From Lagopus muta (taxonomy: Eukaryota > Chordata > Aves > Galliformes > Phasianidae): 64,000 bases of DNA. The stretch spans positions 15,500,001 to 15,564,000 of the forward strand of contig NC_064443.1 of assembly GCF_023343835.1 (NCBI RefSeq), written 5' to 3'. Position 1 is the first letter of the stretch, and the number at the start of each line of letters is the position of its first letter. The notes under the pieces were generated by a model. The model saw only the letters and a list, made by a program, of their open reading frames with translations. It did no database searches and was not told where the DNA came from. This document shows, one piece after another, positions 1 to 50,432 of the stretch. The position numbers and the translations under genes were made by a program.

Positions 1-3950
<3,950 letters not shown>

Positions 3951-10926: not shown

Positions 10927-11027
10927 TCACAGGGTGGCTGTCTCCTCCTCCAGCACCGTCCTGCAGTCCTTAACCCACAGCTTGTAGGCACCTTTCAGTG
11001 TCTCCTCGCTGGTGTCATTGAATATCT
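10927..11027 (-). CDS. EEVS: EEVS exon 5 (C-terminus)
   Basis: A 101-base exon found by phase and homology. The acceptor TTTTACAG ends at 11028. It reads (E)IFNDTSEETLKGAYKLW, continues to EEETATL and stops at TGA 10929-10927. The IFND start and the charged helix fit the C-terminal helix of the family. A GTGAGT overlaps the stop codon; I judge that to be coincidence. Confidence 0.9.
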
Positions 11028-14000
11028 CTGTAAAACAAAGCTTGGAGTTAGCTGGGTATCCAGGGAAGCTTCTCCTGCTTGTTCATGATAGTTTGCTAGG
11101 AGGAGGGCAGCTCCTCTGGGCAGTTTATAAAAGCCTGGTTTCTTGTGAGTGCACAGGTTGGTGGAAATATTCTGGGTACAGGTGTAAGGCTGCAGCCTGG
11201 TCCTATGCATTGCTTCTGCATTCAGATTTTTTAATGTCTTATAGGCAAGAATATCTCACCTGAGTTGCTGAACAGATATTTTTCTTTCCATAATTAGTTA
11301 TAGACATGAAATTCCTTTCTGCAAGGACAACTTAACAACTATTTTCAAATGTAATGAAGGGTCTTTTTCCTTGTATGACTGATGGTTTGTCTGTCCTAGC
11401 ACTGTGTTTAGGCTGTTGGTTTGCATAGCAAAACCAGTGCGCATCCAACTCCTGGTTCCATACTCAAACACTCTGGCTGAGAGAGATGTCCCAGCACTCC
11501 CAGAGCTCCGGCAGCTTGGGGCTGTGCCCACCTTTCCGTAACACCCAACCAGAGATCAGCGCCTGCCTTTATGAGGGACCTGTAGGCTGCCACGATGCCT
11601 CCCCTCAGATGTGACCCACTGGGTCTTGGTCCATTCTTAGGACTCACGCAGGAGGCCTCAGCCTCCCAGCAGGATTGCTGAGATGCCAAGGAAGCATCAC
11701 AGACACCTCCATCGTGCTCTTCAGCACATCCCCATGCTTTGTACCTGCCACGCCGAGGCCGGTGGGCAGCGGCATGCGGGGCTGCCCCCCTCCGTGCCGC
11801 AGGCGCTCCCTCAGCGCCGTCTGGATGAGGGCCCAGCTGCAGGCGCCGTGCCACACGGGCAGCTCCAGGCCCTTCATGCACTGGATGATCTGCTCCTTCT
11901 CATCCGCCGTGATCAGCCCCCGCACATGCGCCACGTATGTCATGAAGGCCATATCAATGGTCACGGCTTCTCCGTGCATCAGCGATGGCAAAACCCTCTG
12001 AAAATGGAGCAAAGGGGAGGTGGGAGAAAAGGGTTGGGTTGCCAAGTATCTGAATAACTACTTATTTTCTGAAGAACCTATGAAATTCAGCTCCGAGCTG
12101 CAGTAGCATGTGTATGCTGAGGGTCAGTACTTTGTGATTTATGGTTTGCAAAGGATGGTCTCTTTTACATGTGATTAATGGCATGTTATATCTCCCACAG
12201 GGATCCAATTCTCCTCCTGTTCAAATTACTGATGAAGTGCACAGTAGGATGGAGGGAAGAGCTCTGAATTTTGCATAAGCTCTGGATCTCCCCACTCATT
12301 TCTCAGTGGCAATTTTCCCCCCAGCAATATGGGCTGTGGTCTCTGTGCCTTTGCACTTCTATAGTTAGTAGGTGGTTTCTAATGGATCCTCTGAAACCTG
12401 GTCACCTCTGTGCGTTGGTAAATGCTTGGCAAGAAAGCAATAGCAACTTCCTGAATAGAAAACACAGCTGGGCTGTGGGGGAAATGGGGCAGCAAAATGC
12501 ATTCCCTGAGCCAGCAGGACCAGGCTGGTTGCATTGGGTGCTCTTCCATTGTTTGTTCAGTTATTGTGTTTGGCTGAGCTACATTTACACCAAGTTTTCA
12601 TGTTGCTGTTTGGATATGACTTTTTTTTTTTTTTTTTTTTTTAAATGAAATAAGGCAGCATGAAGCCTGTCACTCACCATTTCCAGCTCTGGGCTTATAA
12701 GGTGACCAAAATCCACCAGTCTGTCCAGATCATCTTCCCAAAGGTTGGGAGCCAGCTCCTCCAGCATGGTTTCAATGGCAATCCTGGTGGTCTGCAGTGC
12801 AGCGTCCCCACGGTTGGCAGAGCCACTGTAAGACTGGAACTTGGTGTCCAGCAGGTATTTGCCATGGCTCTTGAGCAGGTCAAACAGCCCTTTGTGCTTC
12901 ATGAGTGCCATCTAGATTAAAGAACAGAAGAGGTAATCATAAACAACTACGCGATCCTTGTATGTGCTGCTGACAACAGTGTTTCAATAGAGTGAAGTAC
13001 AGTTGTACGTAATCACATGTTAGCAAAGAAATACCTGTGCATTTGGCACAAGGGCAAATTCTACTCTTTAGGGAAGAAAAGTTGGGAAAGTACTGCAACG
13101 TACAGAATGTGAGGGGTTCAGAAAGGATTTTTTTCCTCCCTTTCTGACTCTGCCATTACAGCTCTCCCGCATTGGAAACTGGGTTTCCCAGTGCCTGCCA
13201 AAAGTTTCCAGACATCCTCAGGGAGTTCCCACAGTGCAAACACAGAAAAATGCTACTGATGAGCTTTTATTCTAATACACTTGAACAGCTTGAACTCTGC
13301 TTTATCAAAAGTTTTCCAAGCTCTTCAGGCATAAAGTCATTTACAGTGCACTTCCCAGGTAATTTTAGAAGTAGAATTTGTCTCGTAGGAGATTGATTGA
13401 CCCCAATCATCATACCCCTCGAGGTAGGTGCGAATGATTTTGCAGATTATTAATCCCCAGAATAATGAGCCTCAAATCGTTTGCGAGCAGTTCATTTAAA
13501 TGTGCTATGGATCAGTCTCCTTCTTACCTGGTTGTGCCTTTTGTCTGTCGGGTTTTGAGTTTGGGAGTTTGTTTACATGGTGTATAAAGGAAAAATTTAG
13601 CAAATTTAGTGGCTGTAACTGTGTAGGCACATATAGCTATGTAGATATATAGCTATATGTATATATAAATATACTATATGAATATATATAGAGAGAGAGT
13701 TACAAGCACCATTGCAGACTTGGTGGCCCACCTTGGAGTCCACGAGGCTGCCTAAATAATGCTGTAGATGCTGACAAATATCTTACCATTATTTCAGGTT
13801 TAAAAGCTGCAGTTGCAGGAGTTCATACCTTTAAGATTTCCCCAAGGCCATTGGAGATGTGTCGCCGGGGAATGCTCTGAATGAAGGATCTATCCAGAAA
13901 GCTAGCTACTGGGGGGGTGTAGCCCCCAAGCTTGTTCTTGCACTGGAGGAAGTTCACTCCATTCTTTGCTCCCACGCTGGCATCAACGTAGGAGAGGAGG

Positions 14001-15848
14001 GTGGTTGGGACGCGGATGTAAGGGGTGCGTCTTCTATAGAGGGAAGCAGCTAACCCCACAATGTCCAGGCAAACACCTCCTCCGATGGCAATGATGGGCT
14101 CTGTTCGCCTGTCAATGCTGAAGTTCTGAACTTCTTGCAGGATGTTCAAGACCAGGTCCATGGATTTCGTCTCTTCTGTGGTAGGCAGGGCGAGGATTTT
14201 GTGCTGCACGTTGTTCTCTTCAAAGTAACGCCGGACTTTGGTGCCATAAAGTTCATTCACGACTTCATCTATGACGATAAAGCGCCTCAGCCTCCTTTTG
14301 CCACCAGTGGTTAGCTCGAGTTGCTGGGTGTCAGTGGTGTGACCCCAGAGAAGAGTAGTGTTAGAGGGATCCAGAATGTTGTTTGTTTCTACCACTTTGT
14401 AGCAGAAATAGATGGGAGCTTCAACTGTCCAGGAAATCCCACCTTCAGAGACACATTCACCTCTAGCAAGGATGAGAAAACATAGCTTGCAATCATTATA
14501 TTTCTCTTTTATACCCTGCATGTCTGAACTGGTTTAAGGAGGTAACCAAAGGTGGGGAACGCGTAGCATCTCTGCCTGTGCACTGCAGAATCGTGGGGCC
14601 GCAAGATGGATAAACCTCATCACATCTAAGTGAAAAGTCAGATGGATGAAATTCCATGTGACAATGACAGAAAGGAACCATAAGGGTTGAAGAAATAAGA
14701 AATTTCCCTTCCAGTTCTCGTCTGTCAGCAAAACAGCAGAAAACCCCAGACCAATAATTTCAGCTTCCCAGAAGGGAAAGGAGAAGTGATTTTCAACATT
14801 TTTTCAAAGATTTTATCAAGGAAACCTTGTCTTCCTGGTAGATTTTGATGGTAAGAATTGACTTACTCCCATCTACCTTCACGCACCCACACACAAACCT
14901 CCACAGAAAGCTCTCTACCATATATTGGTAAGAGTGAATTGATGCTTCTCAAAACAAACATGATAGAAAAAGGAAGTGCTGCTAGACAGCGAAAGAAAGC
15001 AGGGAAGATTTGAGAGATACTTAATAATAGCAAGAAAGGACAAAATGAAACTGTGAAGTGTATTTTATGAGACTCTTCATCTGCAGATGGAGAAAAATTG
15101 AAAGTTTCTGTGAAACTTCAGCTTGTTTTCTGAATGGATGGCTCATTGGATAATCAGGTTTCTCCACATGCCTGATTTCTTTCCACATGCCTGAGCATCC
15201 TCTTGGATGGCGTCTTGGGGGCACTTTGCTTTCTTTGATACCAAACTCCCTCTGAATCTGACCCTAACTCTTTTAAGTGTTAAAGAAAAGCAGTGTGGAT
15301 TTATACCTTCCAAAAAATTCTTCTGACCTTTTAAAACACAATATTACTGAAAGTATTATTGTGCACATTTTAATGCACAAACTTATGCTTTCAGTTTGTA
15401 ATTTTGCTGCACCTGCATTCATCTCCAGCATGTGACCCTTAAGAGACATGGTAATTCTGGATGTTAGTTGGTGGAACTGGCTTTGGATGGCACAACCAAC
15501 ACCAATCACAGCCCCTCAGCTGTATGAAAACAGCAGAGAATTTGCAGCTGACCTTTCCCTTGTTGAAAGAGAGCTCAGCTGAGGTGCATCCCACTGGGGA
15601 CACAGCACACTTTGCACAGCCAGAGCTGTCCAGCCCTATCACCAATGTACTGGGAGCAATGTGAGCTCCTATACTTACATTTTTGCTTCGGAAAGAATGA
15701 TCTTGTCCTCGGGATCAGAAAGGGTTTCTCCTTTCTTGACCCGGCACCACGTGCTCTTGACTCGCACCAGTTGGAAGTCTGTCTGCTGGGGCTCCTTGGG
15801 TGCTGCAGCTGCTGCCATCGGTACAAAACCCTCTTCTGACACTGGCAT
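10927..15848 (-). CDS. EEVS: 2-epi-5-epi-valiolone synthase (EEVS), five spliced coding exons
   Basis: A sugar-phosphate cyclase related to dehydroquinate synthase. It uses NAD and a divalent metal to cyclise sedoheptulose 7-phosphate to 2-epi-5-epi-valiolone, the first step to gadusol. Coding exons, 5' to 3' on the minus strand: 15848/15818-15679, 14462-13829, 12911-12678, 11997-11745 and 11027-10927. All phases fit, giving 453 aa from the inner ATG, or 463 aa from the outer. Visible motifs (inner-ATG numbering): NAD glycine motif GGGVCLD 174-180, PTTLL 199-203, DASVGAK 207-213 and KNKLG 222-226. The expected metal ligands are all present: E255 in GEILK, H328 in DFGH and H344 in MHGEAV. No stop or frameshift is seen. 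Divergent from MT-Ox; placental mammals lack it. Confidence 0.93.
11028..11744 (-). other. EEVS intron 4
   Basis: A 717-base intron. Open frames on the minus strand here extend exon 4 past its donor and have no family similarity. Confidence 0.85.
11745..11997 (-). CDS. EEVS: EEVS exon 4
   Basis: 253 bases between acceptor TTTTCAG (AG at 11999-11998) and donor GTACAAAG (11744). It opens RVLPSLMHGEAVTIDMAF with the third metal-binding histidine and continues LELPVWHGACSWALIQTAL to RMPLPTGLGVA plus one base. It is notably GC-rich compared with the surrounding introns, so the opposite strand and the other frames also show long open stretches, which are shadows. Confidence 0.94.
11998..12677 (-). 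other. EEVS intron 3 with T22/A22 tract
   Basis: A 680-base intron. It carries a T22 run at 12621-12642 on the plus strand, which reads as an A tract in the EEVS transcript shortly after the exon 3 donor. Confidence 0.85.
12678..12911 (-). CDS. EEVS: EEVS exon 3
   Basis: 234 bases (78 codons, phase 0 at both ends) between acceptor ATCTAG (AG at 12913-12912) and donor GTGAGTG (12677). It reads MALMKHKGLFDLLKSHG, continuing GEILK of exon 2 exactly as in the cyclase family. It carries RLVDFGHLISPELEM with the second metal-binding histidine. A T22 tract lies just beyond the donor at 12621-12642. Confidence 0.95.
12912..13828 (-). other. EEVS intron 2 with TA-rich microsatellite
   Basis: A 917-base intron. 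A TATA/TAG-rich tract at about 13625-13703 ends in GAGAGAGAG on the plus strand. Confidence 0.85.
13829..14462 (-). CDS. EEVS: EEVS exon 2 (NAD-binding and active-site core)
   Basis: 634 bases between acceptor TTGCTAG (AG at 14464-14463) and donor GTATGA (starting 13828). It encodes about residues 47-258. It contains WTVEAPIYFCYKV, LDPSNTTLL, the glycine motif GGGVCLD, VPTTLLSYVDASVGAKNGVN, KNKLGGYTPP and the metal ligand in GLGEILK. The open frame running up to an ATG at 14521 reads through the acceptor and is not the start. Confidence 0.95.
14463..15678 (-). other. EEVS intron 1
   Basis: A 1.2-kb intron between the first coding exon and the core exon. No repeats or extra exons are recognised. 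Confidence 0.85.
15679..15848 (-). CDS. EEVS: EEVS exon 1 (N-terminus, two possible starts)
   Basis: The donor GTAAGT is at 15678-15673. There are two in-frame ATGs, at 15848 (A at -3, C at +4) and 15818 (C at -3, G at +4). An in-frame TAG lies a few codons above the outer ATG, so no longer start exists in this exon. From the inner ATG it reads MAAAAAPKEPQQTDFQLVRV and ends LSEAK plus two bases. DFQLVRVK is the start of the family-like sequence. The first ATG met by scanning has the better -3 base, so I include it, but either is possible. Confidence 0.8.
15748..15753. promoter_or_regulatory. CACGTG E-box within EEVS exon 1
   Basis: The palindrome lies in the coding part of exon 1, so coding constraint alone could explain it. 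It matters mainly as part of the cluster of CACGTG boxes at 15748, 16026, 19588, 19680 and 20736. Confidence 0.3.
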
Positions 15849-17824: not shown

Positions 17825-17970
17825 CGTCAGACGCCGTTTGATCTCACAGCTGTCCGGGAGCAGCCCAACGTGGCGCAGTGCAGCATTGCAACAAGAAGCT
17901 CAAGAGCTCACCTGGTGAACCTCAACACTGCCACATCGAAGGACAAGAAGCAACATGCAGTGTCCTGCAG
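17825..17970 (+). CDS. MT-Ox: MT-Ox exon 1 (5'UTR plus the first 16 coding bases, 17955-17970)
   Basis: The coding start ATG at 17955 has A at -3 and an in-frame TGA upstream at 17916, and it reads MQCPA then a split codon. Joined to the next exon it gives [20 protein letters not shown]. The exon is preceded by a strong polypyrimidine tract and CCAG (ending 17824), which looks like a splice acceptor, so a further non-coding exon probably lies upstream. The donor is GTAACC at 17971. Confidence 0.7.
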
Positions 17971-19297: not shown

Positions 19298-19335
<38 letters not shown>

Positions 19336-22300
19336 TAAAAAAAAGGCAGCACTTCTTGAAAAGATTGTATAATCCTTGGCATGGAGGTGTGGAGTTGATT
19401 TTGGCATGTACTGCATGTTGCTGCTGTCTGGGAGCACTTTGTGATGCTTGCAGTTGGTGTTATAACACAGGTTACAAAACAGCTGGAGCTAAATCTTTTC
19501 CCCCTCCCTGAGTGACAGTGCACCCTTGTCAGTTACTCATCCAGGAGTGAAACATGTTGATTGCTGAAATCCGACATGGATTATAAACACGTGTTTTTTC
19601 CGCTAAATTAGCAGGAAGCCTCGGAGTGCTTGACAGGGCAGATGGAGAAGGCAGCTCCTGACACCCAGCATCTTGCAGACACGTGGCAGGAGCCTGGAGG
19701 TGGTGAAAATGTAGCAGAAAGACACTGCGTTGTCACACAGCACATAGCTGGGCTGCGGGGGGTTTGCTGAAGTCAACAAACTAGCAAGGTCTGGGAAAGC
19801 AGCTGTTACTTCTGTACTGACCATTAATTTAGAAATTGCTGAAAGAGGAGCGAGATGCCCGTGATGGTGAGACACCAACATGAGCTGTAAATCAGGGGCT
19901 GCTCTATCTACTCAAAATCTGCTTTTCTTCTGTGTAAGGCTGGGCTGCTGCCAGGAGTATGGTGCTGTATAGGTGACCTCCAAGTCTTCTCCATTAGGGC
20001 AATTCCCGTGTAAAATGAACATGTGTTATTTATTTTCCTGGTCTGCATTCCTACTGTTTGTAACTTGGGTAATGAAAATAAGTTGAAGTTGTCCCAAAAA
20101 ACGGTGTTGTTCTCTTAATATCTACAGAAAGCTGAGATGCCTTGCTCTGAGAAGCAGCCCTTTGGGGAGGTTTAGACCTTTCCCCATTTCCAAAGATGTG
20201 AAGTAGGAGACGCTCAATGTTGCTCCATCCTTAATGAGAAGACCTGACTATCCCCATATCTCTGGTTGAGAACGTGGAGTTGCTCCTGTATCCACCTCAG
20301 ATTTTTCCCCTGAACCCCTCAGACAGAGAAGATATTAAAAAAATAAAATGACATTCCTCTGTCCTGCTCCCATTTGGCTAGAGGTTAACACCAGATCATC
20401 AACAAGGCAATGACAGCAGGTAGGACACCAGTGAGACCCAATGTTTGATGAGTATATCCAAGATGGCATTTTGGGTAGATAGAAAAGAAATGGAGAAGAG
20501 AGAAATCAGAGGTATGTGTCGTGGATGGCCCCACAGCTGCTGGGCTGGTTTGGGCCAGTCCTCCTGAGGAAACATGTCCTTGATGGTGGCTCTGGCCTGC
20601 ATCACTTTGTTTTCAGCAGCTTTTCTGCCACAGAGAATAAAATCCTGCCAGGGGCAATTTCTCCACCCTGGGTGTGCATACAGCTTGTTTGCCATGTGCC
20701 TCAGAGCTGCTCTCACCGGTGCTTTCATAACCCCACACGTGCTCTGACACTTGAGGAATGGGGAATATTTCAGATCTCACTCTGTGTTGTCACAGCTCAC
20801 CGGGAGCCAAAGAGAAGTGAATTAGAAGTGTGTATTCTTTTCAGGTTGAGAAACTTTCCATGGCTGTTTCCATATTTGTTCAAAAACCTGTACTATGTAT
20901 GACTTCTGGTTTAAATGTCTGCTGATTTGAACAGTTATCATTGTTCTTTCTTTTTCCATTTCAGAAACCCCAATGGGAAGCATTGCAGAGAACCTTCTTA
21001 AAGCCCAAGAAATAGCCCTCAATGATCCTCGTGTACCTGAACAACTCAAGAATTACTTACAGAAAGCTCTTCTTGTTGCCCTTGGACTGGACCCTTATTT
21101 GGTTGCAATGGCAACTTCAAAGAGGTATGGATCCCCTTTTATAACTTTGTGCTTTTCTTCTCCGACTGTATGAATATGTTTCTAGATTCTCTGTTCAAAA
21201 TGTGCCATAAATGTGGAGAGCAGAGGAGAGAAGGAGAATGAGAGTTGACTGTGTTCAAATATATCGTGACACTTGCACTGACAAGTGTGTCTGAGTGCAC
21301 CCATGGCCTTGAGGAGAGGAGGTGAGAAGAAGAAGTCTAGCTGTAAGTTGTGTGAGCTGTTTTACCTGATTGCTGCTAACTATGGCAAAGTATTGCACCA
21401 TATTCTTGGAAAAATAAGCAAGCCAGCTTCCAGAAAGGGCTGGCTGAAAAACCCAAGGAAACCCTGGATTGAACCAGTGCTGGGATAAATAAAATATGAC
21501 GAAAAACTGCATCACAATCTCTGACTGCCCCTATAATAACAGCCTTTAAATGCAGCTTTTATCTCCAGCGCTCAACAAACACTAATTAATCTGCTAACTA
21601 AATAACTCTGCTAACTAAACTAATTAATTAAACTAATTTAAGGTATCATTAATTCAGAAGTCCAACTGAAACCCTCATTATTCTTTTTTCTCCTTTTTTT
21701 CAGTATATTACCCAGCCATGTGGGGTCTGCTGAACAATTCCCATTTATCAGTGTACATTCTGATATGTGGAAAAAGCCAGTTCTGTCTTAAATTGACAAT
21801 GTGTAAACTGTTCCAGGCTGTGGATTATGGGAACACTGAGTGTTCGTTCTGTTGCTGAAATAATAGCTGATAGTTGTTTGACTTACGCTTGCTGTATGAT
21901 AATAGCTATACATTATCTTATTAAAGTTGTTAAAGCATTTGTGAGGGGCAGAAAAGAGGTTATATGAAATGTTCTACTCTTTAAGACTTGGATTATCTGA
22001 GTGTGGCTGACACGGGTTATGAATTCTTTCTCATTTTACTGGTGAGTGGTGGGAGGAGAAGAGGGAGGGATAAAAAAGCTCAAATGACTCTAAATTCTGG
22101 CCTGCAGAAGTATCACCAGCCATTTCTGGTGGTTGCTTTCTTCAGATACGGTAATCTAATCTGTCTCCAGGCTATGGACTTTTTACAGTCATCTTTTTAT
22201 TTCCCACTGCAATAGGCAGTATCTCACTTTATCCAGACTTCTCTCAGACATGGGTTCTGTGAAATAGTGTCTGGAGGTGCCCTGTTCTCTTTGCAGTTTG

Positions 22301-34300: not shown

Positions 34301-37300
34301 CCGTACTGAATACTTATTCAAAACATTTTACTTAGCTTTCTTAAATCCACTTTGCTTCTTATACCAAGGAGCCCTTTGCTGTCTTCCGGGATGGTGCCAT
34401 CATTTCATGATGGATTTTAAACATCAGAAACTCTGTGATCTCAGTTTTAGCTTTGTTAGACATCTCGGGTGTATCTCCCTTGGCTACAGGGGTCTTTGTT
34501 TTTACATCCTGAGTGAATACCTTTTTCAACTGTTGCTAATGGATCCTGACAGAAGAACCAAAAATGATGAAACAGAACCAAAAACTCCTAAGGGTTACCT
34601 TCCTATACATACTCCTCTGTCTTCAGGGGGAACTGCTTCTTCTACCTTAAGGGAAGAATTAATCTGATGGGATTTTTAAAATGTGCATTTTCACTGTAAA
34701 CTATGCAAATGCCTTCCCCACAATGTCACCTCTGATCTTCATGTCTGTATGCAAGGTATTACTTCCATTTATGCTGAGAGCCAAGAGATGGAGCCCCGTG
34801 GCAAAGGGGCTCCCCTGCAGAAGGGCAGATTGGGCATGCTGGGGCTCCTCTTCTGCTCCTTTCATCACAAAACTGCCCCCACTAGCTTCACAGAGACAAA
34901 CTGAAGACTGAAGAGGTGCTTTTGTACCATCATGCGTGTAGCTGCAGGGCCGTGTGTTTCTTGCTTCTGGTTGATACTACAGATTTAAGCTATTTTTCCA
35001 CTGTTTGTTTTGTTTACTTATTTAATCAGAAGGTTGGGGTAACAGTGGAGAGAAAGAAACTGTTTATTTTCTTCCCACAGAGTGCAGAGATATCAGCTGA
35101 TTAAGGTCAAGCATGGGATTGTTTGAAATGAGCATGCCTTCACTAATTCTTCTCTAGACACTCAGTGCACCTTTTGTCTTGTTTTTGTGAACTATCATGT
35201 AGGATGAAGCTGTAAATGGGGTGAGAGTTGGAGGGCAGGTGAAGAGCCTCGTTCTGTTGCCCTTAGTTACACCCATTTTGCCTGTAAATTGAGTAAGAAT
35301 GACCACGATGGTTTCCTCTAAGTCTCAATAACAATTAGGAGGAGCCAAGTAGGCTGTCCAGATATTCTTATTCTTCCAGCATGTTTATCATATAAACTGT
35401 GATTAACTAAGAGGGCTTGTTCATTTTTTGTAGGTGGCTCCCTGCATGGGGAGATTATCACAGGGCTGTTATTGCTTTGCCTCCATTTTAAGACATTGTT
35501 TGGGGGAGCCTTCTCTTCTGCTCAGAAATATTTGAAGTTTTTTTGAGGAGGGATCTGAACTCCATACATGTTCAAGAGGGGACAGTACAGCAGTGCCCAT
35601 AGCCCTTTGGGGACTGGTTTCTGAGCATTCTCGTGAGGTCTGAAGCATCGTCTGGGAGTTTAGATACATCTTGAATGCTGAAGAATGCATATGGTATTGA
35701 TCAAATGGTCTCAAATGTCCATGAAAAATGGGTAAGATACCAGTCAAATGGTCTCAAACATAGACAATCAGCACTACAAAAACGAGCCAGCCCTTCCTGT
35801 CTGCAGTAGGAATCACCTTTTCTTCTTGCTTTCTAGGAGAACTGCTTATAACACACAATCTTTCCCCAGTCCAGTGGTTTGCAATAACCTTGTTACAGTG
35901 GCTTAATAATAAGGATATTTAAAACAGAATTTGGTATTAAATTAAATGAAGCTAATTACAAATCAGCACTGGAGCAATAGTCAACATCTGGATTGTTTTT
36001 CTAGGAAAGGAAAGCACAACTTTTACATAATTTGATATCCAGCAAATCTTTTCCCTTAAGAATGTTTGTGCTGCTTACTCTGACAGTGTGATGTGTAGCA
36101 AGTAAGGCTTGGCACCACGACCACCACACCTGTGAGCCTGCAGGTATTTCCAGTTAGCTCCCACCTAAAACTGGGTTAGTTTTCTCTGAAGCTCCATGCT
36201 GACCTGCGTCGCAGTTCAACAAGAAAACACTTTTTTGGACAAATTGGTTGAATTTCTGTAGCATCTGGAGATCTGTTGTATAATATATGTGTATGTGTTT
36301 GCATTTGAGCAAATGAAGGAACCCATTGCTTTGTCTTGCTCCGGAATTGCACTTTCTGGTCCCCAGCACCCAGGAAGTGCTGGAGTTGCTCCCCTGCTGG
36401 GAAGCTGCAGTTGAGTGTTTGGACAGAAGATGGTGCAGTGTTCACAGCTTCGTCCTGCTGGAACGCTGAGCTCTGCTTTCAATCTCAGTTTTATGTTGGC
36501 TACCAGCAGGCAAACCAACTCCAGTTAGCAACTTAAATTTCATTGCAGTAACAAATGCACAACTGGCTATGGTTTGTTAGCAGCAAATTAAAGTGGCAAA
36601 TATATATTTAATACATACATACATAGAAAATACAGATATATAGTGCATGGAGATGAATTAATAAACAATCATAAGACTGATTTCTTTTTTCTCTCTGAAT
36701 TCCCATACTGATTTCATCACCTCTGTTTCAATTCAGGGATTAAAAGCATTGCCCTTGCAGCAGATGTGAGCAAACCCGAGGATGTGCAAAGGATTGTTGA
36801 TACCATTGTAGCTCGATGGGGTACAATTGACATTGCATGCAACAATGCTGGAATCAATATGAATTCTGCAAGTGAAGATACTTCACTAGAAGAATGGGAC
36901 AAAACTTTCAATGTCAATTTACGAGGACTATTTTTGTGCTGCCAAGTGAGTGTGAATTGCTGTACAGGTTTGATATGCAAATGGGCAGCAATGTTCTCAG
37001 TGTTTAATTTACCAAGATTTTATTGGTTTTTGGTATTATTTATTAACACCATTTTATTGTTAATGTCATCATAATGGGGTTGACTTCATGGGATTAATCA
37101 ACTTACAGATTTTGGTCAATATTTTCAGAACAGCTGGTCATTACTGGCCGTCCCAGCTCAGGTGCTTAAGAATGGCCTGATTCTGGGGGGGGGTGATTGT
37201 TTGACACTGCCTGAAGAGCAGAAAGCTTTGGGGAGCCATTGCCAGCATCAGTGATTTAAAAAAAAAAAAGAAAAAAAAATTGCCAAAAGCAAAGTGGGTC

Positions 37301-40300
37301 CAAAATGGCAATGGAATTTTTCCTGCATCAGCCATTTTTATACCAAGTTTTTATATTGAGTGCTTAAAAAAATGTGTGAGAGCATACACTCTTCTGAAAA
37401 GTGAAGACTAATTTATTATCATGTCATTATTAGCACAATCACAAAAAGGGTCACTGGTCTTTCCTTTAATTTCTGTCACAGGCTGCAGGCCGCATTATGC
37501 TGAATCAAGGATATGGGAAGATAATTAACACAGCATCTATGGCAAGTTTAATAGGTGAGTGATGAGAGCTAACAGTTGTGCTTCAGAATCCATATTTTAA
37601 TTACTACCGATGCTATTTGAATCAATTAAACCTGTATTGGGAAGGAGTAAATCACTGACATTTTGTATTAGAGGAAATGTACTACAAAATTTTTATTGAT
37701 ATCATTTTTCAACATTCATCTGTCCTCTATGTTTTAGAGCACTTACTGCTTTTTATAGAAGAGGTGGAGTCACCTCTGTGCCTGATGCAGGGATGGCATG
37801 GGAGAAGTGCTGGTGCATTCCCCACTAATTTCAGGAAAATGTGTTTCAGTGCAGGAAGTGGTGCCCTGCTGATGTTTACAAGACACCCAAAAGCCATTGT
37901 GCCATTCCTTGCCACAGTACCATGGTTATATTTCATTGCCGTTGCCAACAGGTGTCTCCACCGACGCTGCTGATTCAGCAGCGTCGTCAAAAGCACCAAT
38001 AAACCATTGTAACATATGGAATGAAATCCCTACTGCTGAGCTAATCTGGAAGGCAGTTACATGCTGGTGAACTGAGGCCCATGTAACAAAAATTGATCAA
38101 TTACACAAATTAAGCATAGCCCTTTAGGAATTTATTTTATTGGTCTGGACATCTGTTGCAGTATTGTCCAAATCCAAAAATCAAATGGTGCCTTGGGTTG
38201 CCAAGTTAGGCAAGAAAATCTAGTAGCTATAAAAGTACAACTGAAAACCCCTGTATTAATATCATGTCCATCTGCTGAACGTTACATAAATATGCAGTCT
38301 TTTATTTTCCTTGGGAATAACATTTATTTTTATAGTGCCCAGTTTGACTTTCTGTGACATTCTGTTCAGTTTATTGCGTAGTAACTTTAAATGTTTCTTC
38401 AAAAGTGCATTCATAATATTGTTGTTAATTTTTGTCAAGTGTCTTTACCAGCTGTTTCACTTATGCTCAAGCGCAGGCACCATACCCCTGCCCCAGCTTT
38501 GTGTAACAAAACCTCCTGAAACAAAAGTAGATTTGAAAAGACTGCAAAGCTGTCGACTTCAGGTGCCCTCATGAAGTGCAGCTCTGAGTGCGGCCCAAAA
38601 GGGGCATTGTGCATCCTGTTTAAATGGCACTGAAAGTTAATGCATGTGGGCATGGGTAGGCCAGAAGTTAGGAGACAAAGGGATGTGTTTACCTTCTGAA
38701 CCTGTTTGGATCTTGGCATGAGAAAAATCTAGTAGTTATAAAACTACAACTGAAAACCACGATGTTCATATCATGTCCATCTGCTGAATGTTAAATAAAT
38801 ATGTTGGTTGGTTGGTTATTTAAGTATGTTGGCCAACTGGCAAAGTATGAAATGTTTCTAGAAATAGTTAGGGGATATATATATTTTTTTTTGTAGGTTG
38901 AGTCCTTCCTAGAGATAGAGGAAAATGAGGAGACTCTTTGTAGGATAGAAAGGTTTTTGTTTGTGATTTTTTATTTTCCAGATACTTTGCTCAGAATCAA
39001 TTTTAATTAACTGAAGATAGGCTGCATACATTTTGCATATGTGCATGTTGATTCTGGTGTTTGACTGGAATTATTCCAGACGTATGCTTCAGCAGCAGAG
39101 AGGAGGCTGCTGCTGCTCTGTCATTTGTACAGGTGGAACTCCGCTCTAATTTTTACAGCAAATATCTTTAGTGGGAAGTGATCTGTTCTTCTCTCTGTGT
39201 GTGCTTCTCATTAACATTATGCGGCTGCTTCAAGGTCAGGCGAGAAGCCTTACGAACAAGGTAGCAAAAACATTGTGTCAGATGTTTAAAATGTAATGCA
39301 GCTGATCTTGGCAGCATTTTTATCTGTTCGCCTCCTGCCTTCTCCATGCGAAACAGGGGCGAGTGTTCTCCCTTCATGCAGGCCTTATGAACTCAGAAAT
39401 CCTGATGACACCACTTGAGGCATGGCTTCCTTCACAGGCTCTGGTTTGGAGCGCTGAAGATTTGTGGGTCTACGAAGCATTACCCAAAAATGTGGCTCGG
39501 GGAATGGAGGAAGTGGTACAGATGCTCAACAAAGTTTTTGTGTGTCTCAGGAGAAGAATATCCCATCTTGGTTGCCTTCTTTAGCCATTCCTATGAAGAC
39601 AAAAGCACTGACATGGAGAGAGCCTTGTAAATCCTAACACCCCCACCCCAAATCAGAGTGCTGACTGCTGGCAACCACTAGCTGCTCTCACCCGTGTGGG
39701 CAAGAGGTGCAGAGACAGTGCCAAAACTCTTATCCTCTGAGCAAACTTCCAGTGATTTATCACAGACAGACGTGTTTGGAAAGTTTAGCAATGAGATGCT
39801 TTGGGGAGCTTGTGAGGTTAACTACCGAAGTTGTACATAACTTGAAGCTGATGTGAGGCAATTAATCAGGAAATTAGGTGCCACTCCTGCTCGAGAGCCC
39901 ACACAGAGCACTGTGTTTGTGGGGTGATGGGGACATGGATAGCAGCAGGGTTCTGCAGGTTGGAATGGGAGTCATTTGGTACAGAACAAAAAATTAGGAC
40001 AGAAGAAATGCTGGCAAAGGCGACAGTGTCAAATAGTTTTAATTCTAAAAAGGCCCAGTTCTCAGCATACCCTCAGCAAAAGGAAGCACTAATTCTTGCC
40101 ACAATTTTTTATGTTCTTCAAATCCATTCGTAGATACCAAACTCCATTCGTAGGTACTGCAGATATCTCTGTTTGTAGATGTTCTGTGTTCAGTGAGGCA
40201 TTGGCACAGGCTGCCCACAGAGGTGGTGGAGGTCACTGTCCCTGGAGGTGTTCAGGAAAAGGGAATATGTGGCACTGAGGGCCATGGTTACTGGGAAGGG

Positions 40301-43300
40301 GTTGATGGTTGGACTAGATGATCTTTCCTACTATAATGATTTCATGGTTCTGTGATTCAAGGCAAAGGTTCTTACTGGCTTGCTCAGCACTTTGCATCAG
40401 GGGTCTTCACTGTTTCAGAGTTTGATTAACTCTGTCACTGTCTTCTTTTCACACTTGAAATCAACACACTTGGAAATAATTGTTTTAGACAAAAAGTAGT
40501 TGTGAAGGTGTTGGGGTACCCTAGACAGCAGTGGTTTGGAACTTATTCACCAACTTCGTAAATTCGACAAAGCTTCATGAGTTAGGCCAATGTAATGTCA
40601 ACTTCCAGTGACTCCACGTGCTTCTATCCATGTATTGTGAGTTTCACCAGAGGCTCCCAGGGTGCAGAGCTGCCTAACTGTACAAGTCACCAATGCTTGT
40701 TGCATGGTTACTGACATTCAGACTGATTTTCCCCGCTTTCACAAAGTTCCCTTTGATGTCCTATTACATCAGTGCCTTGCACCAAATTTATTTAAGGAGA
40801 TCACGATAGCCAGCAGGTCCTCAGAGAGACAATGTACAGGTGGAAATCCCAACAGCCACACTGACTCAGGTTGGTTCTGATGGGTTTAAGGCACTTTAAA
40901 CCCACTGTGGATTTGTCCTTAAGCAGCTTTCTGGGAATGCTGCAAGCACGAGAGCTGGCAGAGGGGCAGAGCCACCAAGCACACCGCACTAACGAGCTTG
41001 AACATTGTAATTAGCAAGCCGATCATCTTCCCTCCGTGACTGACATGTGACATCCCTGAAACATCTTCAGAAGCTTTAGACTCTGAAAGTGGTGGGTGTT
41101 CAGGATTTTTGGGATGCACCTGTGCTCACATCCATACAAACACTGATTAGATAATGTGTTTGCTTCAGACTGTGGGTAATTTAAAAATTAAAGTGAATAA
41201 TTTGTTCCAGGGAGATATATAACATGGTATGTTATATACAAATCTGTAATGCATGCGTATTATATCATGTGGTATGGTTTTATATCAGTATTGCACTGTA
41301 TGCATATTTTCCATAAAATATACATGTGTATAAAACGTAAACGTGCAAACATCAATGTGATTATTTATCCTTCCTGGAAAAAGTCAAACACTTGCATATA
41401 TGCTTAACACACTGCTTTTGGCTTTGCCAAAACACAGAATGATTTGAGTTCATTTCTTTTATTTTTTTTTGCGTTTCTCCCAGATGCTGAAGCAAAAATG
41501 TGAGGTGACCACAGGTTCAGTTTTGCTGTGTGATGGCTAAACTCTTGTTGCTCCCTGCCTGGTACCAGGGAAAACGCCAAAGAATTCATTTCAAGGCAGG
41601 GAACGGCGCTGGAACTTCCCTGCACGCCTTAATTTGAGGAGAATAAATATTTTCCTATTTCTGAATCTCTTCCAGTTCCGCACCCGCAGAAGCAGTTGGC
41701 GTATAATGCCTCCAAAGCCGGGGTCGTAAAATTAACACAGACGTTAGGAACGGAGTGGATTGACAGAGGAGTAAAAGTCAACTGCATTTCCCCGTAAGTA
41801 AAATGTAGTCTCGTTCTGAAGGTACAAAGGGAATGAAATGTTCTAAAAAGCTCAAATGAGCAGTATCTTGGAAAATAAAGTTTCTAATTAGTAGGTGGAT
41901 TGCATCCCTTTTTATGTTGTCTTTTCCTTAACAAAGGTTTAAATACTTATAACCGAGCCTGCTCTGTTGCTGTGTATACTCAGGGATTTAAGAAGAGGTT
42001 TTAGCATTTGATAATAGGTTTTCCAATAATGTGAAGGGTAGTTTTTAGCATTTCTCTTCCAGATGAAATATTTCCTTAGTCTGTCCAAGCCTTCCGCGGT
42101 TAAAGAAAAGGCTTTTGACACTTAATAGACAATACTTCTTTCCCCTTTTTGCTTGAGACAAATATATAGGCACTTAAAACGCCACATTGCAGCGCTGTAA
42201 TTGAGATAGTGTTCAGCTCTGACAGTTGCAGGAGGCCAGGTGTAATTTTGTAAATATATATCTATATTTATTACAAATTACATTTTCCTTATTTTTGGAG
42301 GCTTAAAGCTGCACGTTGTATTTTACGGTGTTTATTCACAGAGCAAAGTTTTCTTGCCATCTTTTCTCTCCCTGTTTCTCGCAGTCATGACCAACACAGT
42401 CGTTTTATTAAACAATTAACAGTGCATGATAGTGCTAAGCAGAAACCCAAGTGGATAGCACTAATTGGAAGCGGTCAAATTCCGTAGACCGTTGAAGTCA
42501 ATCAGAGTAAGTAAGAAGGGCAGGATTTTAACCCAGGAGTTAAATTGTAATAATGAAGTTATAATGTATGTCAAATTAGGAAAAACAAATTACATATTTT
42601 AATCCACAAAGTGGAAGAGAAAAAAAACCACGGAGCTCAATGGCAAGTGCCCGTGTTTTTACTGTCAGTTCGACTCTCCACTTCCTTGTGCTAGCTGTCT
42701 TCCTTATGATTATTTATTACTAATTATAGCAGTGACTCCAGCCTTTGCTTGATGTGATCCATGGATTCTTTAAACAGCATCTCACTTGCTAGTAGGATTT
42801 TCCCCATGCCAGTACTAGCAGCTCTGCTGTAGCTTTCTCACAGCTAGGTCTGCTGAATTTACACAGGCTTTTGCAAGCCAGGGGAGATGAAGGGAATTAG
42901 GGAAGCCCAGCAGGACCTGGCAGGAACTGTGCCTGCAAATGCACAGGTAATCGTTACCAACAGAGATGGGATAGTATGCCACATTTACTGTGATCACAGG
43001 TGAGAAGGCTCTTAGAGGAGGAATTACCTATTCTTAAGGGGTTTACATAAATTTTAAAAGTCTCCACTGAATGATCAAAACTCATTGTTTTGTGTAAGTT
43101 GGAAACTTACACTCTTATTTGAAGAAGTTATGCTTTTAAAGGCAGTTGTCAAAGCATTGGGAAAAGAGAGTCATGCTTCTCTTTTTCTACTTTATAAGCC
43201 AAAATGAGGTTGCAGTTTTATCATCATGTCTTTAACTCTAACTCTAGCTCAAAATCCTATGATAGCAAGTGGGATTTTTCTTTGCAAAGTAATAGCCAGG

Positions 43301-46300: not shown

Positions 46301-47719
46301 TAACTGGCTGCCTCAATGGGCCACTGATTTCTTTGAAGTGACAGTCTGTAAATATGCATAAAAAAGAGATGCAATTAGCGTGTGTGTGGTTCAGTGCAGC
46401 CTGATTTCATTGGCAAGTTTACCCACAGTGTTGATAAGCTACATTATCTAGAAAATTGGCCGCTGAAAAACAGCACCTCTGATTGCCAGCAAAGGTTCCA
46501 GATAACAGGGTGCTGAAGAGAAATATAATTGAGGTTGAATATGTTAACCAAGGTGTCACATGCTCCTTAGAAGCGCTAATTTATCAGCATGTTGGAATTT
46601 TTATTAACATTTGGAATGCATTTCTACCACACTAATGAAGTGGAATTGGCAGTTCAGGTTTTAGTTATTGTCATTTCTGAGAAGTTAAATGTAATTTCTC
46701 GTTAGACACAGTTATGTAAATATATTTGTTCAGGGGCTGAAAAAATTATACATTTCACAAAATACAAATATGTTGTTAAGGAGGAGTATGACAAATCAGT
46801 CGTAGTTAAAGTCATAAAAGCCAGCCAAACATTCACCATGCATTGTGCTTTCCGGAGCATCACTCATTTTTAGGGCACCAAGAGAAAATGTACTTAGCAG
46901 AGTTTTAATAAACGGTGTTGTCTCATTAATGTAAAGCAGGCAAGACAGGTACGTGCTTTGCTGGGGTATTTGTTTGATGGGATTCCACTGTGATGTGTCT
47001 CTCCTTTTTTGTGTGGAAAGAGTTCAGGGCTGAGAAAGGTGCTGGCATTTGCTTTCCTTGTATTTAATGTGTGGGAAGTTGGGCTGTTTTCAGTTTCTGG
47101 GCAGGATATGAACATACTGTGTAACATCATGCTGCAAAAAGAGAAATCAGAATAAGGACAGCAGTTCCCAAGTATAGCGACAGACCTGGTTGGAGGCACT
47201 TTCAATTTGAATGCCATGTTGTCTTCTATAAGAAAATGTAAATTGGAGTTGATGATGAGTAACCCGAAAGTTAGGGGGTCTTGCTGTTAGCTAAGATGAC
47301 AGTGTGCGTGTGTTCTCCTTTTAAAATAAATTCTCTAAGCCTGCCCAGTGGTAGTGCAAGGCAGTCGGAAAACAGCGCTGCTGAAGTTTGCATTATGAGC
47401 TTCGTTCAATGCCAAGGCTCTCCATGCTACTCCCCACGGCTTTCCTTCTGAATTAACACCTTGCACTGCCTTTCCACTTGGGCCAACAAATCCTTAAACC
47501 CACATCGTGTGTGCTCTTCGCAGAGGCATCGTGGACACGCCGCTCATCCACTCCCCGGAGCTGCAGCCATTGGTGCAGCGCTGGCTGGCAGACATCCCTG
47601 CTGCCAGGCTGGCACGGGTCACCGACCTGCAGGCTGCCGTTGTCTACTTGGCCTCCGAAGCTTCAGACTACATGACGGGTCACAACCTGGTCATTGAGGG
47701 TGGCCAGAGCCTGTGGTGA
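17955..47719 (+). CDS. MT-Ox: MT-Ox: methyltransferase/oxidoreductase fusion for gadusol synthesis (one exon unresolved)
   Basis: A two-domain enzyme that oxidises and O-methylates 2-epi-5-epi-valiolone to gadusol with NAD and SAM. Recognised coding exons: 17955-17970, 20965-21124, 23882-24114, 29611-29847, 30985-31062, 32264-32480, 36737-36945, 37482-37554, 41676-41793 and 47524-47719. The first part is a CCoAOMT-like class I methyltransferase (motifs [20 protein letters not shown]). The rest is a classical SDR with [16 protein letters not shown], catalytic S in NTASMAS and YNASK. Phases agree from 23882 to the stop. Between 21124 and 23882 a bridging exon of length 3n+2 (about 110 bases) is required but not convincingly seen; without it the frame breaks. 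The methyltransferase key residues are altered. The gene may be functional, partly decayed or a pseudogene. Confidence 0.88.
19301..19344 (+). repeat. Poly(A) tract (A30)
   Basis: Thirty consecutive A, then TTAATT and a second A8 run. It may be the tail of an old retroposed insert, but I cannot recognise a parent sequence upstream. Confidence 0.7.
19588..19593. promoter_or_regulatory. CACGTG E-box in MT-Ox intron 1
   Basis: It lies in AAACACGTGTTT, an extended palindrome. A second CACGTG is 92 bases away at 19680-19685 and a third at 20736-20741. Together with the two EEVS boxes these form the densest CACGTG group I found in the window. Confidence 0.35.
20965..21124 (+). CDS. MT-Ox: MT-Ox exon 2
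   Basis: 160 bases between TTTCAG (ending 20964) and GTATGG (21125). It encodes [20 protein letters not shown] and then a leucine/alanine-rich helix ending VAMATSK plus AG. This matches the N-terminal helical region of the methyltransferase domain. It ends with two bases of a codon, which does not fit the phase of the next recognised exon. Confidence 0.85.
21125..23881 (+). other. MT-Ox interval that should contain the missing exon
   Basis: 2.76 kb between two phase-incompatible exons. It contains a 17-base tandem duplication (two CTGCTAACTAAA units, 21591-21625) and a strong acceptor at 21703. A weaker homology-like reading lies at about 23609-23701 (LFNK, then [17 protein letters not shown]) and lacks proper splice sites. 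No clean exon of length 3n+2 is evident. Confidence 0.6.
21704..21816 (+). pseudogene. Candidate degenerate MT-Ox bridging exon
   Basis: A strong acceptor (pyrimidine tract then CAG at 21701-21703) opens a frame in the phase exon 2 needs (AG|T gives Ser). The reading [11 protein letters not shown] is loosely like the serine/valine, His-Asp and Trp-x-Lys pattern expected here. The frame stops at TAA 21789, and the expected donor GT near 21817 reads CT. The end coordinate is where a 3n+2 exon of expected size would close. It could be a decayed exon or chance. Confidence 0.2.
23882..24114 (+). CDS. MT-Ox: MT-Ox exon with SAM-binding motif (altered)
   Basis: 233 bases between TTCCGCAG (ending 23881) and GTAAAG (24115). 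It starts with two bases of a split codon, then [20 protein letters not shown]. It includes motif I as [10 protein letters not shown] and the second strand as [10 protein letters not shown], and ends GPIADTLE. The frame is fully open. In the family the strand-1 motif is normally E-I-G-x-x-x-G-Y and the second strand carries an acidic residue after Ala-Cys; here these positions are Leu and Ala. Confidence 0.88.
24115..29610 (+). other. MT-Ox intron (5.5 kb)
   Basis: Large, mostly unique intron. No gene or recognisable transposon was seen. A short A run at 29454-29467 lies near its 3' end. Confidence 0.8.
29611..29847 (+). CDS. MT-Ox: MT-Ox exon, methyltransferase C-terminal half
   Basis: 237 bases (79 codons, phase 0 at both ends) between TTTTCCAG (ending 29610) and GTTGGT (29848). 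It reads [20 protein letters not shown], then [31 protein letters not shown] and SDPRVEQ. FIDAD holds a predicted metal ligand. The usual Asp-Asn metal pair appears as Glu-Asn. Confidence 0.95.
29848..30984 (+). other. MT-Ox intron with T20 tract
   Basis: A 1.1-kb intron. A T20 run is at 30796-30815. Nothing else recognised. Confidence 0.8.
30985..31062 (+). CDS. MT-Ox: MT-Ox exon, end of the methyltransferase domain
   Basis: 78 bases between ATCTGCAG (ending 30984) and GTGTGT (31063). It encodes [20 protein letters not shown], the last strands of the domain, then VIESK at the start of the linker to the dehydrogenase. Phase 0 at both ends. Confidence 0.93.
31715..31924 (+). repeat. CR1 LINE 3' end, about 210 bases
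   Basis: It has the typical CR1 order: GGTGCTGGAACAAGCTGCCC, then CCATCCCTGAAGGTGTTC, GGTTGGATGGGGTCCTGGGC, GGATGATCCTTAAGGTTTC and a TGTGATTCTAT tail. Plus orientation, inside an MT-Ox intron. Confidence 0.9.
32071..32105. repeat. (ATTT)n microsatellite
   Basis: Repeated ATTT/TTTA units with one interruption (ATGT), upstream of the SDR Rossmann exon. Confidence 0.8.
32264..32480 (+). CDS. MT-Ox: MT-Ox exon, linker and Rossmann motif of the SDR domain
   Basis: 217 bases between CATTTTAG (ending 32263) and GTAAGC (32481). It encodes the linker [20 protein letters not shown] and the dinucleotide-binding start [20 protein letters not shown] (TGxxxGIG). VVDL follows, where an acidic residue favours NAD. 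It ends with one base of a glycine codon. Confidence 0.97.
32481..36736 (+). other. MT-Ox intron (4.3 kb)
   Basis: No gene, CR1 or long repeat recognised. A TA/CATA-rich stretch occurs just before the 3' end (about 36598-36650). Confidence 0.8.
36737..36945 (+). CDS. MT-Ox: MT-Ox exon, SDR NNAG segment
   Basis: 209 bases between AATTCAG (ending 36736) and GTGAGT (36946). It encodes [39 protein letters not shown] and [17 protein letters not shown] and the NVNL asparagine are standard SDR core features. Confidence 0.97.
36946..37481 (+). other. MT-Ox intron
   Basis: A 536-base intron with an A-rich run at 37258-37278 and a G7 run near 37185. No other content. Confidence 0.8.
37482..37554 (+). 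CDS. MT-Ox: MT-Ox exon, SDR catalytic serine
   Basis: 73 bases between TGTCACAG (ending 37481) and GTGAGT (37555). It encodes [20 protein letters not shown] then ASLI and one base. The serine in NTASMAS is at the catalytic-serine position. Confidence 0.95.
37962..37986. repeat. Perfect 12-base inverted repeat, 1-base spacer
   Basis: CGACGCTGCTGA at 37962-37973 and its exact reverse complement at 37975-37986. It is CpG-containing and GC-rich in AT-rich intron DNA. Possible remnant of a transposon end; no element identified. Confidence 0.85.
38215..38294 (+). repeat. Direct repeat copy A (80 bases)
   Basis: It starts AAAATCTAGTAGCTATAAAA and contains ATATCATGTCCATCTGCTGAA. It is nearly identical to 38724-38803, 509 bases downstream in the same orientation. 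Confidence 0.85.
38724..38803 (+). repeat. Direct repeat copy B (80 bases)
   Basis: Second copy of the block at 38215-38294, with roughly ten scattered substitutions and no length difference. It is followed directly by a (GGTT)n tract. Confidence 0.85.
40123..40157 (+). repeat. Two tandem copies of a 20-base unit
   Basis: TCCATTCGTAGATAC and TCCATTCGTAGGTAC start exactly 20 bases apart (40123 and 40143), just upstream of the CR1 at 40190. Too short to assign. Confidence 0.7.
40190..40358 (+). repeat. CR1 LINE 3' end, about 170 bases
   Basis: AGGCATTGGCACAGGCTGCC, then GAGGTGGTGGAGGTCACTGT, CCCTGGAGGTGTTCAGGAAA, GGTTGGACTAGATGATCTTT and a TTCTGTGATTC end. These are the hallmark segments of a CR1 tail. 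Confidence 0.92.
41676..41793 (+). CDS. MT-Ox: MT-Ox exon, SDR YxxxK active site
   Basis: 118 bases between TCTTCCAG (ending 41675) and GTAAGT (41794). It encodes [20 protein letters not shown], then [21 protein letters not shown] is the SDR Tyr-x-x-x-Lys. It ends with two bases of a proline codon. Confidence 0.97.
44118..44265 (+). repeat. CR1 LINE 3' end, about 150 bases
   Basis: GATGGATGCTCCATCCCTGG, then GGCATTCAAGGCAAAGCTGG, GGGCAGCCTGGTCTGGTGG, GGGGGTTGGAGCTAGATGG and a CCATTCTATGATTCCATG tail. Plus orientation. Confidence 0.92.
45538..45571. repeat. Inverted repeat, 13-base arms, 8-base loop
   Basis: AGGATGGTTTTTC at 45538-45550 is the exact reverse complement of GAAAAACCATCCT at 45559-45571. 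It lies about 75 bases before the A25 tract. Confidence 0.85.
45646..45670 (+). repeat. Poly(A) tract (A25)
   Basis: It follows AAACT without an AATAAA nearby. It might mark a retroposed insert; the upstream sequence is not recognised. Confidence 0.7.
47524..47719 (+). CDS. MT-Ox: MT-Ox terminal coding exon
   Basis: 196 bases after acceptor CTTCGCAG (ending 47523). It encodes [20 protein letters not shown], then [20 protein letters not shown] and [16 protein letters not shown], closing with TGA at 47717-47719. The C-terminal GG-x-x-x-W is typical of this SDR group. The exon is GC-rich relative to the flanking DNA. Confidence 0.97.
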
Positions 47720-50380: not shown

Positions 50381-50432
50381 GCAAAAAGAAAAAGAAGAAA
50401 AGAAAAAAAAAAAAGGAAAAAGGAAAAAAGAA
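50381..50432 (+). repeat. Purine-rich GAAAA tract
   Basis: Almost pure A/G over 50 bases; a polypurine stretch in intergenic DNA. Confidence 0.7.

What the first reader, a model, noticed from the sequence alone, without database searches (positions are those of the whole stretch)
10927..47719. Gadusol biosynthesis gene pair (EEVS and MT-Ox) in a bird-like genome, beside MITF
EEVS and MT-Ox together are the known animal route to the sunscreen and antioxidant gadusol. Both are here, divergently arranged and next to MITF, as reported for fish where mitfa and frmd4b flank the pair. EEVS looks fully functional: five exons join in phase with all predicted metal and NAD residues. Here the pair lies beyond the 3' end of MITF. 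In human, as I recall, FRMD4B lies at the 5' side of MITF, so local order or orientation may have changed.
Basis: partly seen in the sequence, partly recalled or inferred. Interest (0 to 1): 0.8.

Follow-up and report, generated by a model that had tools for sequence, protein, structure and literature searches.

The report
Bird gadusol genes, methyltransferase probably dead
A gamebird-like genome carries, next to MITF, the two-gene pathway that fish use to make the sunscreen gadusol, but the methyl-adding half of the second enzyme has lost key active-site residues, so birds and other land vertebrates may make a different molecule.

Summary
In detail: a galliform-like bird window carries EEVS (5 exons, 463 aa, minus strand) and MT-Ox (11 exons, 553 aa in one model, plus strand), head to head, beyond the 3' end of MITF. 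The pair in birds was already published (Osborn 2015), and no rearrangement is indicated. Its oxidoreductase (SDR) half keeps its catalytic residues. Its O-methyltransferase half does not: in COMT numbering the window has E64L, E90A, K144Q, D169E. Among 185 listed database proteins, 70 of 70 fish keep all four; among 115 tetrapods, E64 and E90 are never kept, K144 and D169 in one doubtful row each. Checked EEVS and SDR active-site positions are kept in both groups. Yet in birds the methyltransferase domain evolves, relative to the SDR, about as slowly as the fish domain; in frogs about six times faster than in fish. Best reading: a working oxidoreductase fused to a conserved pseudo-methyltransferase, so the pair alone probably yields oxidised, unmethylated EEV, not gadusol. 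No activity was tested; the product is inferred. This bears on the question, raised in 2015, whether other carriers make gadusol.

The parts
3558..3950 (+). MITF C-terminal part, last coding exon (neighbour gene)
   Evidence: PF11851 (DUF3371) at E 4.8e-42 on the ORF 3342-3950, residues 73-197, stop at 3950. Pfam gave nothing for the small ORF at 1802-1963, which I read as MITF bHLH-zip by eye.
10927..11027 (-). EEVS exon 5 with stop
11745..11997 (-). EEVS exon 4 (HGEAV, second metal-ligand His)
12678..12911 (-). EEVS exon 3 (VDFGH, first metal-ligand His)
13829..14462 (-). EEVS exon 2 (GGGV NAD motif, metal-ligand Glu)
15679..15848 (-). EEVS exon 1 with ATG (MPVSEEG)
20463..20511 (+). MT-Ox candidate first exon ([12 protein letters not shown])
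   Evidence: Matches the Centrocercus model P0121; other relatives' models start differently; uncertain
20965..21124 (+). MT-Ox exon 2, N-terminal part
22776..22867 (+). MT-Ox exon 3, variable linker; end uncertain (GC donor after 22867, or GT donors such as after 22909)
23882..24114 (+). MT-Ox exon 4: methyltransferase motif I ([11 protein letters not shown]64 to L) and ACAEV (E90 to A)
   Evidence: PF01596 1.7e-12 on the ORF around it; residues
29611..29847 (+). MT-Ox exon 5: FIDADQ (K144 to Q), VEN (D169 to E)
   Evidence: PF01596 1.5e-14 on the ORF around it; residues
30985..31062 (+). MT-Ox exon 6, end of the methyltransferase domain
32264..32480 (+). MT-Ox exon 7: SDR dinucleotide motif GGGQGIG
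   Evidence: PF00106 1.2e-09
36737..36945 (+). MT-Ox exon 8: SDR NNAG
   Evidence: PF13561 2.4e-17
37482..37554 (+). MT-Ox exon 9: SDR catalytic Ser
41676..41793 (+). MT-Ox exon 10: SDR YNASK, catalytic Tyr and Lys
47524..47719 (+). MT-Ox exon 11: SDR C-terminus and stop
   Evidence: PF13561 3.8e-10

Best explanation
The window holds the orthologous EEVS/MT-Ox pair of a galliform-like bird. EEVS is predicted to cyclise sedoheptulose 7-phosphate to 2-epi-5-epi-valiolone (EEV). The SDR half of MT-Ox is predicted to oxidise EEV with NAD+. The N-terminal half is homologous to O-methyltransferases but is probably a conserved pseudo-methyltransferase: it has replaced the residues for SAM ribose binding and the catalytic base. 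The pair by itself therefore probably gives oxidised, unmethylated EEV (2-O-desmethylgadusol or a tautomer), not gadusol; in birds the altered domain is kept under constraint, perhaps as a structural or ligand-binding part. Shown here by sequence: gene structures, orthology, residue replacements, domain rates. Inferred: loss of activity, product, role.
For: EEVS: 16 catalytic-site positions that I chose on ValA all match in the window and nearly always in 44 tetrapod and 76 fish(-like) EEVS rows. SDR: all 8 motif positions kept in the window; the only substitutions in 185 rows are Tyr and Lys in three bird models with garbled SDR halves and one Asp in a fish. MT: E64 kept in 70 of 70 fish and 0 of 108 tetrapod rows with a letter there; E90 70 of 70 and 0 of 112; K144 70 of 70 and 1 of 113 (frog P0281); D169 70 of 70 and 1 of 112 (bird P0196, one of the garbled models); no tetrapod row keeps two of the four; the window has L, A, Q, E. 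Roles in COMT: E90 holds the ribose hydroxyls, K144 deprotonates the substrate (PMC3164188, passages); D141, D169, N170 hold Mg (PMC5001633, passages); K144A dramatically reduces or abolishes transfer, depending on substrate (PMC5462536, passage). Fish-invariant columns kept in the bird consensus: MT 46 of 69, SDR 141 of 145. Constraint: MT/SDR branch-length ratio, bootstrap median (2.5-97.5%): birds 1.17 (0.78-1.65), fish 1.29 (0.96-1.98), turtles 1.94 (1.24-3.00), squamates 2.63 (1.81-3.96), frogs 7.70 (5.24-12.84). EEVS and MT-Ox rows of Cyrtonyx, Numenius, Spea and Ascaphus show equal contig lengths, in line with linkage.
Against: No activity was measured. D141 (111 of 113) and N170 (110 of 112) are kept in tetrapods, and Glu at 169 could still hold a metal. 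The eight named MT positions were not lost significantly more often than other fish-invariant MT columns (birds 4 of 8 against 23 of 69 overall, P 0.25; turtles P 0.19; squamates P 0.13). Strong constraint in birds could also mean an altered but active enzyme. A separate methyltransferase could finish gadusol. Pfam still scores the turkey MT-Ox for PF01596 at 126 bits (cut-off 22; herring 189). Many compared proteins are gene predictions, and rows are best-scoring hits, not a sample.
Confidence: 0.68

Rival explanations
1. An ordinary gadusol pathway: bird MT-Ox still methylates, with altered cofactor contacts, and birds make gadusol as Osborn et al. 2015 supposed.
For: Orthology and shared locus; MT core identical at 163 of 170 positions between the window and Gymnogyps californianus; D141 and N170 kept.
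Against: E64, E90 and K144 replaced in nearly every tetrapod row; no report of gadusol in birds was seen in the listings of four searches of the held library, which lacks most subscription papers.
Confidence: 0.15
2. Gadusol or a relative is still made, but methylation was handed to a separate methyltransferase, for example a COMT-like enzyme.
For: Vertebrates have COMT and relatives (general knowledge); EEVS and SDR sites are kept.
Against: No candidate was identified; the search of this genome for PF01596 genes did not complete, so this is untested rather than excluded.
Confidence: 0.12
3. The bird pair was recruited to another pathway; the SDR half acts on something other than EEV.
For: Source names for these proteins are unspecific (D-threitol or D-arabinitol dehydrogenase-like, uncharacterized).
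Against: EEVS and the SDR stay together and keep their active-site residues.
Confidence: 0.05

Closest known systems
Vertebrate gadusol pair EEVS + MT-Ox, zebrafish LOC100003999 and zgc:113054 (Osborn et al. 2015, PMC4426668; section 4 part 1 and section 5 read)
   Same: Same two orthologous genes, same two-domain MT-Ox, same MITF neighbourhood; birds already named by the authors.
   Different: Here the methyltransferase half has E64L, E90A, K144Q, D169E; the parts read and the word search show no discussion of tetrapod MT residues.
Bacterial EEVS ValA (PDB 4p53)
   Same: 166 of 372 aligned residues identical; 16 chosen catalytic-site positions kept.
   Different: Bacterial, from the validamycin pathway.
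COMT / caffeoyl-CoA O-methyltransferases (PF01596; 3tr6, 3cbg, 1sui)
   Same: Sequence homology of the N-terminal half.
   Different: Cofactor and base residues replaced here.
[quoted passage not shown] section 13 read, discussion passages)
   Same: Precedent for a vertebrate COMT-related protein that works without the canonical active site.
   Different: Unrelated gene, membrane protein, no SDR half.
Green-algal EEVS/MT-Ox neighbourhood (PMC7826186; passages)
   Same: Related EEVS and double-domain MT-Ox.
   Different: Further enzymes beside it; its MT residues were not compared here.

Membership tests
[quoted passage not shown] 3 rows are unnamed. Solved structures: ValA 1.7e-97, next 5.2e-59.
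[quoted passage not shown]
   which residues are ligands is recalled from dehydroquinate synthases.
[quoted passage not shown]
   The list of 14 is in figures not held; 16 positions of my own choice match.
MT-Ox (fused methyltransferase-oxidoreductase) | PF01596 and SDR in one open reading frame | tested here: met
   Exon by exon in the window; whole protein in the turkey orthologue.
MT-Ox (fused methyltransferase-oxidoreductase) | Linked to EEVS and MITF | tested here: met
MT-Ox (fused methyltransferase-oxidoreductase) | SDR glycine motif and catalytic Asn/Ser/Tyr/Lys | tested here: met
Gadusol-forming MT-Ox | SAM-binding and catalytic residues of the methyltransferase | tested here: not met
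   Window L, A, Q, E at E64, E90, K144, D169; 70 of 70 fish keep all four. COMT numbers assigned by motif.
Gadusol-forming MT-Ox | Makes gadusol from EEV with NAD+ and SAM | not testable with these tools
   Needs an enzyme assay

The most novel reading that the evidence does not exclude
The animal gadusol pathway was rewired at or near the origin of tetrapods: the methyltransferase half died, EEVS and the oxidoreductase stayed, and land vertebrates that kept the pair make an unmethylated, ascorbate-like cyclohexenone reductone; in birds the dead domain then gained a new constrained role, while in frogs it is decaying.
Probability: 0.35. Interest if true: 0.85.

Novelty: new variant of a known kind. 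Interest (0 to 1): 0.62.

Why it matters
Birds, reptiles and amphibians have been put down as carriers of the gadusol pathway on gene presence alone, and Brotherton and Balskus asked in 2015 whether the other carriers really make it (PMC4428005, whole text read). If the tetrapod enzyme cannot methylate, that inference is wrong and many land vertebrates make an unknown small molecule. The difference is a handful of residues and can be tested directly with two recombinant proteins.

Tried and rejected
Changed gene order around MITF: not supported. FOXP1 and MDFIC on the right were sought, but those searches did not complete. An MT-Ox without the MT half in amphibians: not in the four frogs listed (P0241, P0244, P0249, P0281; 452-523 aa, all with PF01596); one bird row, P0272, is a 296-aa model without PF01596. 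Preferential loss of the eight named MT positions over other conserved MT columns: not significant. Rates: 185 proteins plus the window were thinned by gaps and identity to 63; that first run gave birds a ratio of 0.67, inflated on the SDR side by three garbled bird models, and its fish figure was invalid (rooting). Dropping P0192, P0196, P0200, also P0157 and P0174 (runs of MT mismatches; this lowers the bird MT length) and the squamate P0205 left 57 sequences and a bird ratio of 1.09. Tree topology was constrained to the accepted clades. AlphaFold on the condor protein P0127 was middling (mean pLDDT 65; 59-89 by block over residues 91-260) and the 50 listed of 2000 Foldseek matches are SDR-type structures, so it says nothing on the MT pocket. 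No Rfam family. No crocodilian, lungfish, coelacanth or shark name was seen among the rows, so the timing of the loss is open. Of the 70 rows counted as fish, 6 are unnamed metagenomic rows placed by similarity. dN/dS could not be computed for want of a second bird's DNA. No statement of methyltransferase loss in tetrapods was seen in the listings (40 of 101 listed); only the papers and passages cited were opened. Rice et al. 2023 is not held; known to me only as a reference in PMC12920782 (passage).
Full report
What is there. The window is C14:15500001-15564000 of a 1.03-Gb assembly. EEVS lies on the minus strand, exons 15848-15679, 14462-13829, 12911-12678, 11997-11745 and 11027-10927, introns GT-AG, 463 aa. 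MT-Ox lies on the plus strand, 11 exons from 20463 to 47719; one model gives 553 aa. Its third exon has several possible in-frame ends and its first exon is taken from one relative's model; both lie outside the catalytic domains. MITF, plus strand, ends at 3950. The closest rows (Cyrtonyx, Colinus, Numida for EEVS; Centrocercus, Meleagris, Excalfactoria for MT-Ox) point to a galliform bird; the species was not identified. A PF11819 match taken for FRMD4B lies about 208 kb left of the window on the same contig.

What is known. The accompanying commentary asks whether the other carriers make gadusol (PMC4428005).

What is new here. MT-Ox was compared across the 185 distinct proteins listed by two searches (each lists the best 120 of thousands): 85 bird, 10 turtle, 15 squamate, 1 tuatara, 4 frog and 70 fish rows. 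Clade labels rest on the names shown; six unnamed rows were put with the fish by similarity. Every fish row keeps E64, G66, G70, E90, D141, K144, D169 and N170 (COMT numbers, assigned by motif). In tetrapods, of the rows that have a letter, E64 is kept in 0 of 108, E90 in 0 of 112, K144 in 1 of 113 and D169 in 1 of 112; D141 in 111 of 113 and N170 in 110 of 112. The two exceptions are a frog with an otherwise ruined motif I and a bird model whose SDR half is garbled. No tetrapod row keeps two of the first four. Squamates with a letter there also lose G70, and the frogs most of motif I. The SDR motif positions are kept in all rows but for gaps, one fish at Asp, and Tyr and Lys in the three garbled bird models. 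The chosen EEVS positions are kept nearly always in 44 tetrapod and 76 fish or fish-like rows.

Why it is likely inactive. In COMT, E90 bonds both ribose hydroxyls of SAM and K144 takes the proton from the substrate (PMC3164188, passages); D141, D169 and N170 bind magnesium (PMC5001633, passages); alanine at K144 dramatically reduces or abolishes transfer, depending on the substrate (PMC5462536, passage). In the five alignments printed for the herring domain against solved structures (of 73 matched), each structure has an acidic residue at the E64 and E90 positions and lysine at K144. The window has L, A and Q. That E64 matters is general knowledge of class I methyltransferases, not from these papers.

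Why it is not simply decaying in birds. Between the window and the California condor the MT core is identical at 163 of 170 positions and the SDR at 241 of 254. On a fixed, clade-constrained tree of 57 thinned sequences the MT/SDR ratio of summed branch lengths is 1.09 in birds (19 sequences), 1.29 in fish (22), 1.91 in turtles (7), 2.56 in squamates (4) and 8.14 in frogs (4); 60 bootstrap replicates put birds at 0.78-1.65, fish at 0.96-1.98 and frogs at 5.24-12.84, frogs over fish at 6.1 (3.8-9.9). Six sequences had been dropped for suspected bad prediction; before that, three garbled bird SDR halves gave birds 0.67. So the replacements are shared across tetrapods, and bird lineages hold the altered domain about as firmly, relative to the SDR, as fish hold the active one. 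A conserved pseudo-enzyme would show this; an enzyme with a new, unrecognised active site would too. The named active-site positions were not lost more than other conserved MT columns by a significant margin (birds 4 of 8 against 23 of 69, P 0.25): the whole catalytic domain drifted, not only its centre.

Proposed mechanism. Sedoheptulose 7-phosphate to EEV by EEVS; EEV oxidised at C-2 or C-3 by the SDR half with NAD+, as postulated for the fish enzyme; no methyl transfer, so the product stays an unmethylated enediol-type cyclohexenone. The altered MT half may steady or regulate the SDR, or bind a ligand. [quoted passage not shown] Product and role are inference only.

Limits. No expression, enzyme or metabolite data; no second bird genome at DNA level. 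The search of this bird's genome for other PF01596 genes or a second MT-Ox did not complete, so a partner methyltransferase or second copy is not excluded, although no listed tetrapod row keeps even two of the four residues.

Noticed in passing
31496-31789 (+) and 44017-44304 (-): Open stretches that look, from memory, like tails of avian CR1 LINE reverse-transcriptase ORFs inside MT-Ox introns.
   Followed up: no
22860-22920 (+): MT-Ox exon 3 has several in-frame ends, one with a GC donor; related models differ in this linker (53 or 67 residues between GLDxYL and motif I in four birds measured, 61 in all eight fish measured).
   Followed up: partly
P0241, P0244, P0249, P0281 (frog MT-Ox, not in the window): The MT halves of four frogs have lost most of motif I and evolve about eight times faster than their SDR halves, yet the fused frame stays open.
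   Followed up: partly
window 13631-13688, 50379-50433 and others: Thirteen tandem-repeat rows, none overlapping the exons modelled here.
   Followed up: no
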